NCBI RefSeq assembly: GCF_022430525.1
Contig: NZ_CP092519.1
Span: 186,001 to 250,000, forward strand
DNA length: 64,000 bases
Direction of reading: 5' to 3'
DNA from: Cetobacterium somerae
GTDB taxonomy: Bacteria; Fusobacteriota; Fusobacteriia; Fusobacteriales; Fusobacteriaceae
The notes beneath the pieces were generated by a model. That model made no database searches and had not been told where the DNA came from. It saw nothing but the letters and a program-made list of their open reading frames with translations. Numbering within the stretch: position 1 is the stretch's first letter; the number at the start of each line of letters is the position of its first letter. Position numbers and translations under genes: made by a program. Below are positions 13,129 through 19,617 of the stretch, in pieces.

Positions 13129-13162
13129 GCTAGAGTAAAAATTGTACTCTAGCTTTTTTTAT
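13129..13162 (+). terminator. Terminator after lysA
   Basis: A 9-bp stem GCTAGAGTA (13129-13137) / TACTCTAGC (13145-13153) is followed by seven T. It ends the lysine transcript before the next promoter box. Confidence 0.85.
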
Positions 13163-13177
13163 TAAAAAAATTACAAA

Positions 13178-13211
13178 ATAGGATATAAATACGAAAAAAA
13201 AAGGTTATGAT
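13178..13211 (+). promoter_or_regulatory. Direct-repeat box and -10 upstream of the OMP/radical SAM operon
   Basis: The box ATAGGATATAAATACGA (13178-13194) holds two half-sites, ATAGGA and ATACGA, starting 11 bases apart. A TATGAT -10 hexamer follows 17 bases after the second half-site start (13206-13211). No TTGACA-like -35 is present; the repeat occupies that place. Near-identical boxes lie at 17558-17574 (+) and 17518-17534 (-). Spacing of 11 bp is typical of OmpR/PhoB-type regulators, and one is encoded at 16825-17469. Confidence 0.7.
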
Positions 13212-13273
13212 GTCCACACTAGGATTTAGAAGGTTACTAAAGATTTAAAATATGTCATGTGGAGGGATGCTAA

Positions 13274-13945
13274 TTGAGAAAAAGTTTAATTCTATCTTTT
13301 GCCAGTTTGTTAGCAATATGTTCTTTGGGAAAAGAGGTACCAACATCAGTGCCAGAGGTAAAAAAAGAGGTGGTAAATGAAGAGAAAGTTATTTTAGATG
13401 ATTTTTTAATTGAAGAGGAGGAGGCAACGATAACTTCTGATGTAATAGAGGTTAAAGATGAAGAGAGTTCAACTAATCTATATTTAAGATTTGGAGGAGA
13501 TGCATATTCAAAGTACTCTAAGGGTAAAACTAAAGATTTAGGTTATCTTTTTGCAGTTGAAATGACTAGAAATGTAACTGATTCTTTTGAAGCAGGTGTT
13601 GGAACAGGGTATCAAATAAATCCTAAAAATAAAGATACTTCCATTGGAAAGTATGATTCTGTTCCAGTTTATATGACTTTTAAGTATGATTTTAATTTAG
13701 ATAGTCAATGGACTCCATATTTAAAGGGAAATCTAGGATATGCTTTTAATTTTAAAGAAACAGCAAAAAATAAAGTTAATAATGGTGCGTACGTCGGAGC
13801 AGGAGGGGGAGTTGAATACGAGAATTTCTTTACAGATGTTATGTATCAAGTAACTTTTGCAAAGATAGAACCTGAGAATGGAAAAAAAGAAAATTTAGAT
13901 TACTCGAGAGTTATTTTATCTTTAGGATATAAATTTAACATGTAG
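13274..13945 (+). CDS. Small outer-membrane beta-barrel protein
   Basis: A 223-residue exported protein. It has a signal peptide of about 20 residues (LILSFASLLAICSLG), then an acidic, low-complexity linker (residues 20-65, rich in E and V). The rest is made of alternating amphipathic strands: NLYLRFGGDAYSK, VGTGYQI, YMTFKYDFN, YLKGNLGYAFNF, YVGAGGGVEY and a terminal VILSLGYKFNM. This resembles 8-stranded OmpW/OmpA-like barrels, though the last residue is Met, not Phe. The start is TTG 13274, 7 bases after GGAGGG. It is the first gene of a three-gene unit under the direct-repeat box; ligand unknown. Confidence 0.75.
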   Translation: MRKSLILSFASLLAICSLGKEVPTSVPEVKKEVVNEEKVILDDFLIEEEEATITSDVIEVKDEESSTNLYLRFGGDAYSKYSKGKTKDLGYLFAVEMTRNVTDSFEAGVGTGYQINPKNKDTSIGKYDSVPVYMTFKYDFNLDSQWTPYLKGNLGYAFNFKETAKNKVNNGAYVGAGGGVEYENFFTDVMYQVTFAKIEPENGKKENLDYSRVILSLGYKFNM

Positions 13946-13963
13946 TTTTAGGAGTTAAAAACT

Positions 13964-14944
13964 ATGAGTAAAAAAGAGAAAAAAGAAGATATATTGAAAG
14001 GACGAGAAATAGAGTTAAGTTATATTAGAAAAGTAGGGAATTATGAAAATAATGAAGTTGAAAATGAACTAGTTTTTTTCCTGCCTGTAGGTTGTTTTTG
14101 GGCTAGAACTTTAGGTGGTTGTTACCATTGTGGTTTTCAAGATATTATAAATAAAATTACTAGAAAATATTATTGTAATTTAGTTGAAATAGTTAAAGTT
14201 GAATATAAAAAATATTTAGATGTCAATATTAAAAGAGTATTTTTTTATGTAGGTGGATCATTTTTTGAAATTAAAGATGAAGTTCAAAATGAAATTTTAA
14301 GTTTTATTGGTGCACAAGGAACAGTAAGAGATATTTATATAGAAAGCAGATATGAATTTATAACAAGGGAGAATATCCAAAGATTAAAATTTCTGTTACA
14401 GGCTAAAAATTTAGTAGTAGCAATAGGATTAGAAACTTACAGTGAAAAAATAAGAAATGAAGTACTGACTAAAGGCATTAGTAATAATAACTTTGAACTT
14501 GCTATGTATATTTTAAAAAGTGAAAATGTAAAAGCTTTGGTGTATATTTTTATAAAGCCCCCTATAAAAAATATTTCTGATAAAAAAGCTTATGAAGATG
14601 TTTTAAAAAGTTTAGAATTTGTTGTAGAGAGAGGAGTTTCATTTGTTGAACTGAAATCAGGATGTATTATGTACAACACAAAAGCATACAAGCTTTACAA
14701 AACAGGTCAATATACACCACTAAATCTTTGGACTGTGAATAAACTTTTAATAGAAGCTAATGAAAGGTATAAAAATATACCTATAAGATTAGGGGTTTTT
14801 AACGAAATATTTAGCTCTATTGATGTTCCAAAAGGCTGTATTTTATGTGATGAATTTTTAAAAGAGAAATTACAGCTTTACAGAGAAACTATGGATTATA
14901 AAGTGCTAACAAAATATACAACTTGTTATTGTAGCATCATTTAA
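13964..14944 (+). CDS. Radical SAM protein with archaeosine-synthase-like (RaSEA/TIGR01210-type) cysteine motif
   Basis: A 326-residue protein with an unusual cluster motif: C44-F-W-A-R-x4-G-G-C53-x2-C56-G (CX8CX2C). The Gly-Cys-x-Trp-Ala/Gly...GGC-x-x-CG pattern resembles the RaSEA/TIGR01210 Elp3-like branch better than the usual CX3CX2C. Radical SAM barrel features follow: FFYVGGSFFEI, DIYIESRYEFIT, VAIGLETYS and YIFIKPP. Extra cysteines at the C-terminus (KGCILCDEF, TTCYC) could hold an auxiliary cluster. It lies 18 bases after the OMP gene and 13 bases before a lipoprotein gene. No queuosine/archaeosine genes are nearby, so the substrate is unknown; a peptide or nucleoside target is equally possible. 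Confidence 0.7.
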   Translation: MSKKEKKEDILKGREIELSYIRKVGNYENNEVENELVFFLPVGCFWARTLGGCYHCGFQDIINKITRKYYCNLVEIVKVEYKKYLDVNIKRVFFYVGGSFFEIKDEVQNEILSFIGAQGTVRDIYIESRYEFITRENIQRLKFLLQAKNLVVAIGLETYSEKIRNEVLTKGISNNNFELAMYILKSENVKALVYIFIKPPIKNISDKKAYEDVLKSLEFVVERGVSFVELKSGCIMYNTKAYKLYKTGQYTPLNLWTVNKLLIEANERYKNIPIRLGVFNEIFSSIDVPKGCILCDEFLKEKLQLYRETMDYKVLTKYTTCYCSII

Positions 14945-14957
14945 AGAAAGGATAGGT

Positions 14958-15167
14958 ATGAAAAGTAAAATTTTAAAAATAGGATTTGGATTTTTTTTAA
15001 TGTGTCTATTTGTAGCATGTAATGAATCAGGAACTGGAAGTGATGATTTAAATGTAAGTCCAGAGGATCAGCCTATTTTAAAATCTCAGGCTGAAGAATC
15101 AATAAAAACCCCCATCACTACTGAAGAGGCAGTTCCAGTTAGTGAGCCTGAAATTCCAATAAATTAG
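14958..15167 (+). CDS. Small lipoprotein
   Basis: A 69-residue protein with a classic lipoprotein signal: K-rich N-terminus, hydrophobic core, and lipobox F-V-A-C with Cys21 as the lipidated residue. The mature 49 residues are acidic, rich in Ser, Thr, Pro and Glu and apparently unstructured, with no recognised domain. ATG 14958 has AAAGGATAGGT upstream. It closes the OMP/radical SAM operon, followed by a strong bidirectional terminator. It might be a partner of the barrel or a substrate of the radical SAM enzyme; neither is shown. Confidence 0.72.
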   Translation: MKSKILKIGFGFFLMCLFVACNESGTGSDDLNVSPEDQPILKSQAEESIKTPITTEEAVPVSEPEIPIN

Positions 15168-15182
15168 AGCATTTAAATATTG

Positions 15183-15224
15183 AAAATATCCCCCATTTCT
15201 TAAAAAAGAAGTGGGGGATATTTT
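15183..15224. terminator. Bidirectional terminator
   Basis: A 19-bp stem (15183-15201 with 15206-15224; one U-G pair) has a four-A loop. It has T-runs in both orientations and serves the lipoprotein operon (+) and the histidine kinase operon (-), whose stop codon starts at 15225 reading leftward. Confidence 0.88.
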
Positions 15225-16815
15225 ATTCATTTTTATCAAGATAAAAGTAAAAGGCTATTCCATTTTCAGTTAAATCCACTCCATACGTATTTTCATGCAA
15301 TTTAATAATTTCTGAAGTTATATATAGTCCTAACCCTCTTCCATGATTACTCTTAGTTGAATAATATTTTTTCCAGATATTATTTAAATTTTTATTACTT
15401 AATTTTTCTCCATCATTTTCAATTGTAAATTTAATTTTTCCTTCGATATCTTCTTCAATATCTATTTTTATTAAAGAGTTGGCATGTTCTATAGCATTTG
15501 ACAATAAATTTATGATAACTTGTTTTATTTTTTCTTTATCTGCATTTACAAAGATACTTGGTGAGAGAAATACAACATTTAAGTTTTGTAGTTCATTTTC
15601 ATAGATTTTTAAAATAAGGTCAGTTAATTCTGTAATATCAAAACCCTCTTTGTTTAAAACAATTTGATTTGTAACATTTTTTTTATGAATAAGTTCATTT
15701 GCTAACCGTAAAAGACGTTTACCCTCTTCGTTAACTATTTTTATATTTTCAGATTCATTTTTTTCTAAAAAAAGATCAGTAAAGCCAATTATAGCAGATA
15801 AAGGAGTTTTTATTTCATGCATAAAGAGCTTTAATTCATTTTCAAACTCTAATTTAGATTTTATATTATCTTGATTTTCTTTTTTATAAAAGTAAATTAT
15901 ATTTTCTAATTTCTCAGTCATTCTTTTGATATTTTTATAAAGATACCCAATTTCATCATTAGATGAATAGTTTAAAGAGAAATTGTGATTTAAACTTCCT
16001 ATTTTATTAGTGTTATTTGCAAGGGAGATAATAGGTTTAATAATAAGTTTTTCAATTAAAAATCCTAGAAAAACAGTTACTAAAATAAGAAGTCCTATTT
16101 TCATTGAAAAATAGAGTTTTAACATAGGAAATATCTCATTAACTGGTTTAAATTTATAAAATATTAAAACTTTAAATCTATCAATATCTGTTGTTATTAA
16201 CTGAAATTTTCTTTTATCTTTTAACTCTATAGATCTATTTTGAACAGCTGTTAAATCTAAATAAGGGTATAGTTCCAAAAATTCATTGGCTGTTTCTAAT
16301 CCTTTATTTGGCGTTGTGTAAACTTCACCAGAAAGAGTAACTATTTTACTTTTATTGAGATTAATATCAAAATCTTTTATTGTTTCATCTTTTTTTTCAA
16401 TTTCATAAGCCATTAAATAGTTATTAAAAATTTTAATGGCTTTCACTATTACTTTTTCGTTTTTATTTAAAGAAAATTTATTTTGTAAAAATATTTTGTT
16501 AATATAAGGACTTAAAAAAACAATATTTTTTTGCTGTTTATTTTTTAAAATAAAATATGTAAAATCACTTTGTTTGATAAATTTATTTGTGTATTTATTA
16601 AGTAAAATAACATCAGCACTTTTAGAAAATTTATATTCTGTTAATTTATCAGGCTCTAATTTGCCATTGGAAATAAAATCTATTTTTTCTAAAGATTTAA
16701 TTTTGGCAAATCTAAAATATTTTTCGAAATATAAATTTCCTAAATAGAAATCTAAAAGTAATGTTAGAAAGAATATACTCGATAAAATTATTATTAGTTT
16801 AGGTTTAAGTTTCAT
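15223..16815 (-). CDS. Sensor histidine kinase
   Basis: A 530-residue membrane kinase. Span 1 is near residues 7-25, an extracytoplasmic sensor region of about 210 residues follows, span 2 is near 236-256, then a HAMP-like linker, the HisKA H-box (FMHEIKTPLSAI, His333), N-box (NLLSNAIEHA, Asn440), G1 (ENDGE) and G2 (GRGLGLYI, 492-499). The sensor region matches no domain I recognise. Its start lies 9 bases after the response-regulator stop, so the two form one minus-strand operon, convergent to the radical SAM operon. Confidence 0.92.
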   Translation of the reverse strand: MKLKPKLIIILSSIFFLTLLLDFYLGNLYFEKYFRFAKIKSLEKIDFISNGKLEPDKLTEYKFSKSADVILLNKYTNKFIKQSDFTYFILKNKQQKNIVFLSPYINKIFLQNKFSLNKNEKVIVKAIKIFNNYLMAYEIEKKDETIKDFDINLNKSKIVTLSGEVYTTPNKGLETANEFLELYPYLDLTAVQNRSIELKDKRKFQLITTDIDRFKVLIFYKFKPVNEIFPMLKLYFSMKIGLLILVTVFLGFLIEKLIIKPIISLANNTNKIGSLNHNFSLNYSSNDEIGYLYKNIKRMTEKLENIIYFYKKENQDNIKSKLEFENELKLFMHEIKTPLSAIIGFTDLFLEKNESENIKIVNEEGKRLLRLANELIHKKNVTNQIVLNKEGFDITELTDLILKIYENELQNLNVVFLSPSIFVNADKEKIKQVIINLLSNAIEHANSLIKIDIEEDIEGKIKFTIENDGEKLSNKNLNNIWKKYYSTKSNHGRGLGLYITSEIIKLHENTYGVDLTENGIAFYFYLDKNE

Positions 16816-16824
16816 CTTTTCTCC

Positions 16825-17469
16825 TTAAATTTCAAATTTATATCCGATTTTTTTTATTGTTTTTATATAAGCTCCACCTTCTTCTAAAAAAAATCGTAAT
16901 CTCGAAATATGTTTATCTACAGATCTATCATCCCCAAAATAGTCATACCCCCACACAGCACTTAAAATTTGGTCTCTTGTTTTAACAACTCCCATATGTT
17001 CAGCTAAGTAAAAGAGTATATCTCTTTCTTTGGTAGGAAGAGTAATCTCTTTTTTATTTAAAAGAACCTTTTTACTTTTGAAAAAAATTTTTAAGTTACC
17101 GATAGTTTTAATATCCTCTTTTTTTTCAAAAAATCTTCCAACAATGGAAAGAAGAATATGAGGAGAAAAAGGTTTGGTTATATATGCATCAGCTCCTGAA
17201 TTATATGCTTGAACTTGATTTTTTTCATCAGAAAGAGCAGTTAAAAATATAATAGGAACATTTGAAAACTCTCTGATTATTTTAGTTAATTCTAATCCGT
17301 TTATTTTAGGCATCATTATATCAACAATAACTAAATCAAAAGTGTTTTTTTTCATAAGTTTTAAAGCTTGGTCGCCATTAATTGCTTCCATTGAAGGTAT
17401 ATTTTTTTCTGCTAATACCTCTACAATTAATTTTCTAATAACTAAAGAATCTTCAACAATTAATATCAT
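16825..17469 (-). CDS. OmpR-family response regulator
   Basis: A 214-residue regulator. The receiver domain has acidic residues E6-D7, phospho-acceptor D50 (VDIMMPKINGLE), T77 and K99, and is joined to a C-terminal winged helix ending SVDKHISRLRFFLEEGGAYIKTIKKIGYKFEI-type, cut short in family-typical fashion. OmpR/PhoB-type regulators bind direct repeats spaced about 11 bp. Such repeats occur upstream of this gene itself (minus strand, 17518-17534), of the divergent gene at 17626 and of the OMP operon at 13274. It is the natural candidate regulator of all three. Confidence 0.93.
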   Translation of the reverse strand: MILIVEDSLVIRKLIVEVLAEKNIPSMEAINGDQALKLMKKNTFDLVIVDIMMPKINGLELTKIIREFSNVPIIFLTALSDEKNQVQAYNSGADAYITKPFSPHILLSIVGRFFEKKEDIKTIGNLKIFFKSKKVLLNKKEITLPTKERDILFYLAEHMGVVKTRDQILSAVWGYDYFGDDRSVDKHISRLRFFLEEGGAYIKTIKKIGYKFEI

Positions 17470-17500
17470 AAATATCTCCTCCTCTAATGTTGTATTTTAT

Positions 17501-17534
17501 AGTTTAACATTTTTGTGTCGCATTTATATCTTAA
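17501..17534 (-). promoter_or_regulatory. Direct-repeat box upstream of the response regulator (minus strand)
   Basis: Read on the minus strand, 17534 to 17518 gives TTAAGATATAAATGCGA. It matches the box at 13178 at 14 of 17 positions, with the same 11-bp half-site spacing. The hexamer TAAACT (17506 to 17501) lies at exactly the same 17-base offset as TATGAT in the other two copies. This suggests autoregulation of the two-component operon. Confidence 0.6.
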
Positions 17535-17557
17535 AAAATTTATTAAAAATTTAAAAA

Positions 17558-17591
17558 ATAGGATACAAATACGAAATAAAAAAGTTATGAT
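17558..17591 (+). promoter_or_regulatory. Direct-repeat box and -10 upstream of the 17626 gene
   Basis: The box ATAGGATACAAATACGA (17558-17574) differs from the 13178 box at one of 17 positions. TATGAT (17586-17591) has the identical offset, and there is again no -35 hexamer. It shares the short divergent region with the minus-strand copy at 17518-17534. Confidence 0.7.
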
Positions 17592-17625: not shown

Positions 17626-18234
17626 ATGAAAATTAGAAATCTTTTTGGAAAAAAAGAGTTAACAGAAAAAGAGTTAGAGGAACTTTCTAAAATAGAAAGT
17701 ATTTCAAAGAATGAGTTAAGTAAAGAGATATTAGAAAGTTGGTATAAGATTCATTCTGAAGGATACTGGGTGGGAGAACAAAATGGAGAGATTGTAGCTT
17801 ATGCATATTTTATAAGACTAAATGCAAGAGATATAATTACTAAAAAAAGATGGGAATTAATAACAGAAAATGGTATTTGTAAAACTCATAAGAAAGATGG
17901 GAACGCTCTATTTCTAGCAACTCTTGGAAGCAAAACATTTAGTGGTGAAAGTTTTTTAATGAGAGGGATTTTTAAAGAGATTGATAAAGGTTTTTACGAG
18001 AAAATATATGGTATCTACGCTTGTTCAAGAGTTCCTAGTTTAAATAAAAAAAATAATTTACCTTATTCAGAGGATTCTATGATTAAATTATTTAAAAAGA
18101 ACAAATTTATGATTGTTAATATTGAAGAGGAAAAATTAAATAAAGATTCAATTAAAAATTTTAATATTCTTGTTAAAAGAGGAGTTTATGGAGATGATAG
18201 ATTAAAGCTTATTTGGAGGAGAACATGGTGTTAA
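17626..18234 (+). CDS. Unrecognised cytoplasmic protein, possibly GNAT-like
   Basis: A 202-residue soluble protein with no signal peptide. I cannot place it firmly. The strand order W-V-G-E-Q-N-G-E-I-V-A-Y-A-Y-F (near residue 50) and a later loop LMRGIFKEIDKGFYEKIYGIYACSRVPS faintly resemble the acetyl-CoA fold of GNAT acetyltransferases, but no clean Q/RxxGxG/A motif is seen. I chose ATG 17626, preceded by GAAAGGAG, over TTG 17608, which would include the ribosome site in the coding sequence. It is divergent from the two-component operon and carries the same promoter box as the OMP/radical SAM operon. Confidence 0.65.
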   Translation: MKIRNLFGKKELTEKELEELSKIESISKNELSKEILESWYKIHSEGYWVGEQNGEIVAYAYFIRLNARDIITKKRWELITENGICKTHKKDGNALFLATLGSKTFSGESFLMRGIFKEIDKGFYEKIYGIYACSRVPSLNKKNNLPYSEDSMIKLFKKNKFMIVNIEEEKLNKDSIKNFNILVKRGVYGDDRLKLIWRRTWC

Positions 18235-18475: not shown

Positions 18476-18760
18476 GTGGCTAGAAAATCATATTCACCAG
18501 AATTTAAATTTGCAGTTGTTTTGGAAGCACTTAAAGAAAGAAAAACTCTTCAAGAAATCGCTTCAGAACATCATATTGCACCTTCTCAAATATCTCGTTG
18601 GGTAGATGAGTTTAAATCGGCGGGTATCTCTGTTTTTTCTAAAGATATGTCTAGCTCTAAAAAGATTGAACTTCTTGAAGAGCAACAACATGAGCTTTAT
18701 GCTAAAATTGGTAAACTTAGCTCTGAGAACGATTGGTTAAAAAAAAAGCTCGAGAGATAG
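18476..18760 (+). CDS. IS3-family transposase OrfA
   Basis: A 94-residue helix-turn-helix protein: YSPEFKFAVVLEAL then LQEIASEHHIAPSQISRWVDEF, with a C-terminal leucine-zipper-like helix (ELLEEQQHELYAKIGKLSSENDWLKKKL is the heptad region, residues 66-93). The start is GTG 18476 after AGGAGGATGAGG. Near its end lies the slippery heptamer A AAA AAG at 18742-18748 in a nine-A run, from which ribosomes can slip -1 into orfB. Confidence 0.9.
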   Translation: MARKSYSPEFKFAVVLEALKERKTLQEIASEHHIAPSQISRWVDEFKSAGISVFSKDMSSSKKIELLEEQQHELYAKIGKLSSENDWLKKKLER

Positions 18761-19617
18761 CTGATTTATTAGGTAATCCAGTTTCTTTAATCGAAGAAAA
18801 CCTTTATTTTAGCATCTCAGAACAATGTAGAATATTTGGCGCTAGTCGAAGCTCATACTATTACGCTCCTAGGCCTAAAGTTGATATTCAGGTTCAATTA
18901 AAAGAAAAAATAAAGGAACAATACAGTCTAGATCCTTCAGCGGGTTCTAGACGTATTACTGCAGCTTTGAATAGAGCTGGAATACCTGTAAAAAGATCAG
19001 TCATTAGAAGACTCATGAGGCAGCTAAACCTTAAAGGAATTGCACCTAAAAGAAATTTAAGTAAACCTAAAGCTGGAGCGCAGAAATTCCCTTACCTTTT
19101 GAGAAATCTAAAGATTGAAAAGCCTAATGCAGTATGGTCAACTGATATTACGTATTTAAAAACACCAACAGGTTTTATGTATTTAACTGCAATAATTGAT
19201 GTTTATAGTCGTAAAATACTAACTTGGGAATTGTCAAACAGTATGTCTAAAGATTTCTGCATTAATTGTTACAAAGAAGCAGTAAAAACTTATGGTTCAC
19301 CAGAAATATTAAATACGGATCAAGGTAGTCAATATACAAGTAATGAGTTTATCGAAACAGTGCTTTCATCAGGCGCTTTATTAAGTATGGATGGAAAAGG
19401 CCGTTGTTTAGACAATGTCTGGATAGAAAGATTTTGGAGAACAATTAAATATGATTATTTATATCTTTACGAGCATAAAACAACACTGGAATTATACAAA
19501 GGAATCCAATCATATTTAAATTTTTACAACTCAGAAAGAGGACATAGTTCTTTAGGATATTCTACTCCAAATGAAGCTTTTGAATTATCAACTTTTGAGT
19601 ACAAAAAAATTGCTTAG
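18733..19617 (+). CDS. IS3-family transposase OrfB (DDE integrase domain)
   Basis: The frame is one base back from orfA and has no convincing ribosome site of its own, so the product is probably the OrfAB fusion made by slippage at 18742-18748. The rve-type catalytic core is complete: Asp in WSTDITYL, Asp in LNTDQGSQYTSNEF, and Glu in NVWIERFWRTIKYDYLY, followed by YNSERGHSSLGYSTPNEAF. An N-terminal HTH_21-like region (SAGSRRITAALNRAGI) precedes it. No disruption is seen. Confidence 0.92.
   Translation: MVKKKAREIADLLGNPVSLIEENLYFSISEQCRIFGASRSSYYYAPRPKVDIQVQLKEKIKEQYSLDPSAGSRRITAALNRAGIPVKRSVIRRLMRQLNLKGIAPKRNLSKPKAGAQKFPYLLRNLKIEKPNAVWSTDITYLKTPTGFMYLTAIIDVYSRKILTWELSNSMSKDFCINCYKEAVKTYGSPEILNTDQGSQYTSNEFIETVLSSGALLSMDGKGRCLDNVWIERFWRTIKYDYLYLYEHKTTLELYKGIQSYLNFYNSERGHSSLGYSTPNEAFELSTFEYKKIA

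What the first reader, a model, noticed from the sequence alone, without database searches (positions are those of the whole stretch)
13178..17591. Three matching direct-repeat boxes define a two-component regulon around the radical SAM operon
Seen: ATAGGATATAAATACGA at 13178 (+), ATAGGATACAAATACGA at 17558 (+) and TTAAGATATAAATGCGA at 17534-17518 (-). Each has two half-sites starting 11 bases apart and a -10 hexamer at the same 17-base offset, with no -35. The genes served are the OMP/radical SAM/lipoprotein operon, an unknown protein, and the response regulator itself. Known: OmpR/PhoB-type regulators bind direct repeats of about 11 bp overlapping the -35. Inference: the encoded pair controls all three units, forming a self-contained system.
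Basis: partly seen in the sequence, partly recalled or inferred. Interest (0 to 1): 0.75.

Follow-up and report, generated by a model that had tools for sequence, protein, structure and literature searches.

The report
Private switch for cell-envelope genes
A gut bacterium of the genus Cetobacterium carries a sensor-regulator gene pair whose predicted DNA docking site occurs, in the full promoter geometry searched, only in front of the pair itself and its immediate neighbours; relatives of the pair keep similar private docking sites, so this looks like a small self-contained switch for envelope proteins, built like well-known bacterial switches.

Summary
All three boxes are at the stated places with the stated geometry: hexamer-N5-hexamer-N11-(-10). 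In the 2.97-Mb genome the full element occurs with at most one mismatch only at these three places. Shuffled or simulated sequence does not give this. Comparative evidence supports the regulatory reading. In 12 Cetobacterium genomes the element occurs only in the three that carry the orthologous two-component system, always in or near its gene cluster. Related systems, including a paralogue in this same genome, have diverged boxes with the same geometry next to them. The outer-membrane protein recurs beside a related system in another genus, and small lipoproteins or secreted proteins recur throughout. The geometry equals the Salmonella PhoP 'architecture I' class II promoter (PMC3335776). Weak points: binding is untested; the third box is a poor repeat (3/6) with a poor, ambiguous -10; the acetyltransferase-like target is found only in this genome; the G004 regulator has no box of its own. 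Verdict: a genuine, local OmpR/PhoB-type regulon. It is a new member of a known kind, with an unusual cargo: a radical SAM enzyme distantly related to RaSEA/queuine lyase.

The parts
13178..13194 (+). Box 1: half-sites 13178-13183 and 13189-13194, upstream of the OMP/radical SAM/lipoprotein operon
   Evidence: identical 17/17 in G007
13206..13211 (+). -10 hexamer TATGAT, 11 nt after box 1
17558..17574 (+). Box 2: half-sites 17558-17563 and 17569-17574, upstream of the acetyltransferase-like gene
17586..17591 (+). -10 hexamer TATGAT, 11 nt after box 2
17518..17534 (-). Box 3: half-sites TTAAGA and ATGCGA, upstream of the response regulator
   Evidence: 16/17 identical in G007
17501..17506 (-). 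-10-like hexamer TAAACT, 11 nt after box 3 (weak; TATAAA a few bases further is an alternative)
13129..13153 (+). Intrinsic terminator that closes the upstream decarboxylase-like gene and separates it from box 1
13274..13945 (+). Outer-membrane beta-barrel protein, 223 aa (TTG start)
   Evidence: OMP_b-brl E 6e-6, just below cut-off; homologue beside a related system in G031, 32% identity, E 1e-24
13964..14944 (+). Radical SAM protein, 326 aa, TIGR01210 (RaSEA)-like
   Evidence: TIGR01210 E 3e-35, 121.8 bits against cut-off 212; PDB queuine lyase 6p78 E 1e-7
14958..15167 (+). Small lipoprotein, 69 aa (FVACNES lipobox by inspection)
   Evidence: counterpart of 52 aa in G007
15183..15224 (.). 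Strong hairpin terminator between the convergent operon and histidine kinase gene
   Evidence: 19 pairs
15223..16815 (-). Sensor histidine kinase, 530 aa (HAMP weak, HisKA, HATPase_c)
16120..16728 (-). Extracytoplasmic sensor domain of the kinase (residues 30-232)
   Evidence: Model pLDDT 88; no PDB match with E <= 0.001
16825..17469 (-). Response regulator, 214 aa (Response_reg + Trans_reg_C, OmpR/PhoB type)
17626..18234 (+). Acetyltransferase-like protein, 202 aa (weak GNAT match)
   Evidence: PF00583 E 0.027, below cut-off; in 98 phylum genomes found only here

Best explanation
The three boxes are binding sites of the OmpR/PhoB-type response regulator encoded beside them. An envelope signal received by the kinase's extracytoplasmic domain leads to phosphorylation of the regulator. 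Two regulator molecules bind the 11-bp direct repeat head to tail, at the place of the missing -35, and recruit RNA polymerase in class II fashion through the -10 placed 11 nt downstream. This switches on (1) the OMP/radical SAM/lipoprotein operon, (2) the acetyltransferase-like gene, and (3), less surely, the regulator-kinase genes themselves. The regulon is local. It belongs to a wider Fusobacteriaceae group of such systems, several of which have their own diverged repeat placed before neighbouring small exported proteins. Shown here: box geometry, genome-wide rarity, co-occurrence with the system, recurrence in relatives. Inferred: binding, phosphorylation dependence, activation rather than repression, the envelope nature of the signal.
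For: Only three sites with <=1 mismatch in the genome. In 12 genus genomes the element occurs in G000 (3), G007 (2) and G004 (6 listed, of which one pair appears to be the same site at two overlapping contig ends), the same three that carry the orthologous kinase; 0 in the other nine; 3/3 v 0/9, one-sided p 0.0045 before allowing for relatedness. A matrix trained on the three window boxes alone ranks the G007 and G004 boxes first in their loci. Relatives of the system have AAGGGATATAAAAGAGA-type boxes with the same N11 spacing; the five exact hits found in 61 family genomes all lie next to or within about 6 kb of such a system, and G006 has a perfect 9/9 repeat. Box 1 is 17/17 and box 3 16/17 conserved in G007. 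Geometry equals PhoP architecture I: hexanucleotide repeat separated by 5 nt, about 12 nt upstream of the -10, predicted class II (PMC3335776). Terminators bound the operon.
Against: No binding or expression data. Box 3 is a poor repeat (3/6) with a weak -10, and the G004 regulator lacks a box. Box 2 serves a gene found in no other of 98 phylum genomes. Several boxes of relatives (paralogue boxes, G020 lipoprotein box) overlap the 3' end of the kinase gene, so part of their conservation may be coding. The repeat-like sites in genomes G068-G071 run into intrinsic terminators and were discarded. The G017 system showed no box. The search fixed the spacing, so targets with another architecture would be missed.
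Confidence: 0.8

Rival explanations
1. The boxes bind the regulator but act as repressor sites, or as mixed sites (autorepression at box 3, activation at boxes 1 and 2).
For: The box occupies the -35/spacer region, so binding could also block polymerase. Box 3 differs from boxes 1 and 2 and has an alternative -10 (TATAAA) a few bases further on, conserved in G007.
Against: Boxes 1 and 2 replace a missing -35 at the spacing used by PhoP class II activation; without an activator these promoters should be weak.
Confidence: 0.12
2. The element is an extended promoter recognised by an alternative sigma factor or a global regulator, and its closeness to the two-component system is incidental.
For: The element includes a fixed -10 and an upstream hexamer, as a promoter would. 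Fusobacterium nucleatum has a sigma-E envelope response with common -10 and -35 motifs (PMC11005410).
Against: Only three copies in the genome, none in nine congeners without the system, and the sequence diverges together with the system in relatives.
Confidence: 0.05
3. Chance similarity of A+T-rich intergenic sequence plus recent duplication of one promoter.
For: Box 2 with its flanks closely resembles box 1 of G007, so a promoter copy may have been placed before the acetyltransferase-like gene. The window is A+T-rich.
Against: Simulated sequence gives 1 relaxed hit in 6 Mb. Boxes persist in G004, whose kinase is only 65% identical, while surrounding sequence has changed. A duplicated promoter would still be a functional box.
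Confidence: 0.03

Closest known systems
PhoP/PhoQ regulon of Salmonella, architecture I promoters (mgtA, phoP, slyB)
   Same: Hexamer direct repeat separated by 5 nt, about 12 nt upstream of the -10 and over the -35 position, predicted class II activation (PMC3335776); autoregulation and envelope targets (general knowledge).
   Different: Different repeat sequence ((T/G)GTTTA there), a large dispersed regulon there against a local cluster here, and a sensor domain with no solved counterpart here.
CarSR of Fusobacterium nucleatum
   Same: Two-component system of the same phylum with a 17-bp binding motif (PMC12186487).
   Different: CarR sites are almost purely A/T, 161 genome-wide, and at radA the site lies between the -10 and the start site; the box here has invariant G and C positions, few sites, and sits over the -35.
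RaSEA (archaeosine radical SAM, TIGR01210) and queuine lyase (6p78)
   Same: Full-length profile match of the radical SAM protein, E 3e-35; nearest solved relative is queuine lyase, E 1e-7.
   Different: Scores 121.8 bits against a cut-off of 212; sits in an envelope operon; no TIGR01210 match in 96 of 98 Fusobacteriota genomes. Substrate unknown.
Small regulatory membrane proteins under a two-component system, such as MgrB of PhoQ/PhoP
   Same: A small protein of the regulon encoded near the system could feed back on the kinase (MgrB: PMC8404706, abstract).
   Different: Here the small proteins are predicted lipoproteins or secreted proteins with no shown relation to MgrB; feedback is conjecture.

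Membership tests
OmpR/PhoB-type two-component system | Receiver plus winged-helix Trans_reg_C regulator, paired with a HisKA/HATPase_c kinase | tested here: met
   Response_reg E 8e-29, Trans_reg_C E 1e-22; HATPase_c E 8e-15, HisKA E 3e-9, all above cut-off
OmpR/PhoB-type direct-repeat regulon | Direct repeat with 11-bp register at the -35 | tested here: met
   5/6, 5/6 and 3/6 half-site identity here; up to 9/9 in relatives; N11 to the -10 in the counted sites
OmpR/PhoB-type direct-repeat regulon | Site bound by the cognate phosphorylated regulator | not testable with these tools
   Only co-occurrence and co-divergence could be shown
PhoP/PhoQ of enterobacteria | PhoP box sequence (T/G)GTTTA-N5-(T/G)GTTTA | tested here: not met
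   Half-sites are ATAGGA/ATACGA; only the geometry agrees with PMC3335776
CarR regulon | 17-bp almost purely A/T motif at many promoters | tested here: not met
   Boxes have invariant G and C positions and three genomic sites; CarR sites listed in PMC12186487
RaSEA (TIGR01210) | Score above the curated cut-off of 212 bits | tested here: not met
   121.8 bits
GNAT acetyltransferase (PF00583) | Score above the Pfam gathering score | tested here: not met
   15.2 bits against 20.7

The most novel reading that the evidence does not exclude
A Fusobacteriaceae-wide group of paralogous, mutually insulated two-component systems, each with a private diverged direct-repeat box. Each reads an envelope state through a periplasmic sensor fold without a solved counterpart and induces its own neighbouring small lipoproteins or barrels, which feed back on the kinase. 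In this Cetobacterium lineage the system has recruited a radical SAM enzyme of a new subfamily that modifies the envelope components.
Probability: 0.2. Interest if true: 0.6.

Novelty: new member of a known kind. Interest (0 to 1): 0.42.

Why it matters
It gives a predicted, testable operator for an uncharacterised Fusobacteriaceae sensor-kinase group and links it to small exported proteins. Two paralogous systems in one genome with diverged boxes (6 of 17 positions differ between box 1 and the box at the paralogue) offer a natural case for studying how regulator specificity separates after duplication. It also places a RaSEA-like radical SAM enzyme in an envelope operon, a context that suggests a role other than archaeosine synthesis.

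Tried and rejected
An RNA hairpin in the OMP leader over the Shine-Dalgarno site: not more stable than shuffles. Repeat-like sites after the kinase gene in genomes G068-G071: they run into intrinsic terminators, so not counted. Function of the small lipoprotein, the 99-aa gene and the 114-aa secreted protein by Pfam: no credible match. Function of the acetyltransferase-like protein: no relatives in 98 genomes. Sensor domain: no Pfam family and no PDB fold with E <= 0.001; the whole-kinase model matched only kinase cores. Wider search for the radical SAM protein: one congener in genome contigs and 31%-identical proteins on two Streptomyces plasmids.

Full report
Setting. The window lies in a 2.97-Mb genome. 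The closest relative found, G007, is an uncultured Cetobacterium MAG, so the host is taken to be Cetobacterium, Fusobacteriaceae. The region holds, left to right: a diaminopimelate-decarboxylase-like gene (by inspection) closed by a terminator; box 1; the OMP, radical SAM and small lipoprotein genes (gaps of 18 and 13 bp); a strong terminator hairpin; the convergent kinase and regulator genes; boxes 3 and 2 back to back; and the acetyltransferase-like gene.

Observation. All three boxes are present as described. The 17-mer alone is not rare at 3 mismatches. What makes it stand out is the combination with a -10 at N11: at up to 2 mismatches the genome holds 16 sites, of which the three window sites have 0, 0 and 1 mismatch and all others have 2. 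Simulation gave one such site in 6 Mb.

Test across genomes. The kinase orthologue (65-100% identity) occurs in three of 12 Cetobacterium genomes: G000, G007, G004. A pattern that also admits the G004 variant finds sites in exactly these three and in none of the other nine; the reversed control finds 0 or 1 per genome. That pattern was widened after seeing G004, so the cleaner test is: a matrix trained only on the three window boxes puts the two G007 sites and all G004 sites at the top of their loci. In G004 the sites stand before small lipoprotein genes, before a 99-aa gene divergent from the regulator, and as a mirror pair; contigs C30 and C138 overlap at their ends, so one listed site is probably counted twice. 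The G004 regulator itself has no box.

Relatives and paralogue. More distant members (36-51% kinase identity) include a paralogue in this same genome, about 45 kb away on contig C1. Near most of them lie boxes of the type AAGGGATATAAAAGAGA-N11-TANNAT. The exact (0-mismatch) hits in 61 family genomes, five in G020, G031, G009, G000 and G007, all lie near a system of this group; 5 of 5 genomes with exact hits are among the 12 carriers, p 1.3e-4 without correction for relatedness and with a pattern built from some of these sites. The repeat register is kept while both half-sites change, up to a perfect 9/9 repeat in G006. Caveat: some of these boxes overlap the end of the kinase gene; the G031 box and the second paralogue box in G000 (C1:163125) are intergenic. 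In G031 the box precedes a gene run with a homologue of the window's OMP, a CAP-domain protein, the regulator and the kinase. The terminator-embedded repeats in G068-G071 were discarded, and no box was recognised at the G017 system.

Mechanism. The spacing matches PhoP architecture I, where the box replaces the -35 and the regulator is predicted to act as a class II activator (PMC3335776). The kinase has a conserved core and an extracytoplasmic domain predicted with confidence (pLDDT 88) but without a Pfam family or solved fold, so the signal is unknown. Because the neighbouring exported genes are lipoproteins, barrels and secreted proteins, an envelope signal is the natural guess. Regulator binding, phosphorylation and the sign of control remain inference.

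Cargo. The radical SAM protein is a full-length but sub-threshold TIGR01210 relative, present in two of 98 Fusobacteriota genomes, with queuine lyase as nearest solved relative. It should not be called RaSEA. Its substrate is unknown; modification of an envelope component made by the same operon is a conjecture only.

Verdict. As biology it is a local OmpR/PhoB-type regulon, a new member of a known kind, of moderate interest.

Noticed in passing
L092 8431-11172 (G004); L076 2454-5228 (own genome, beside the paralogous system): A large exported-looking protein stands near the system in G004 and near the paralogue in G000, G006 and G007. The G004 copy has GGDEF and EAL domains; the others look alike by sequence start and length. 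A possible link to c-di-GMP signalling.
   Followed up: partly
L071 2778-2860 (G004): Two boxes face away from each other about 16 bp apart between the 99-aa gene and a small lipoprotein gene.
   Followed up: no
L092 7440-8053 and 12177-12774 (G004): A box + small lipoprotein + secreted protein unit is present twice, as near-identical copies about 4.7 kb apart.
   Followed up: no
window 16120-16728: The sensor domain gives a confident model (pLDDT 88) but no PDB match at E <= 0.001; it may be a new sensor fold.
   Followed up: partly
window 18476-19617: A two-ORF transposase of IS3 type by inspection lies directly downstream of the acetyltransferase-like gene, which occurs in no other of 98 genomes; in G007 the gene divergent from the regulator reads instead as the start of an RND transporter.
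   Followed up: no
L120, L121, L122, L123 just after the kinase gene: An 11-bp direct repeat lies at the end of the kinase gene and runs into an intrinsic terminator; not counted as a promoter box, cause unknown.
   Followed up: partly
L076 14059-15045: An omptin-family outer-membrane protein (E 3e-45) lies beside the second box of the paralogous system, which itself points to a short membrane-protein ORF.
   Followed up: no
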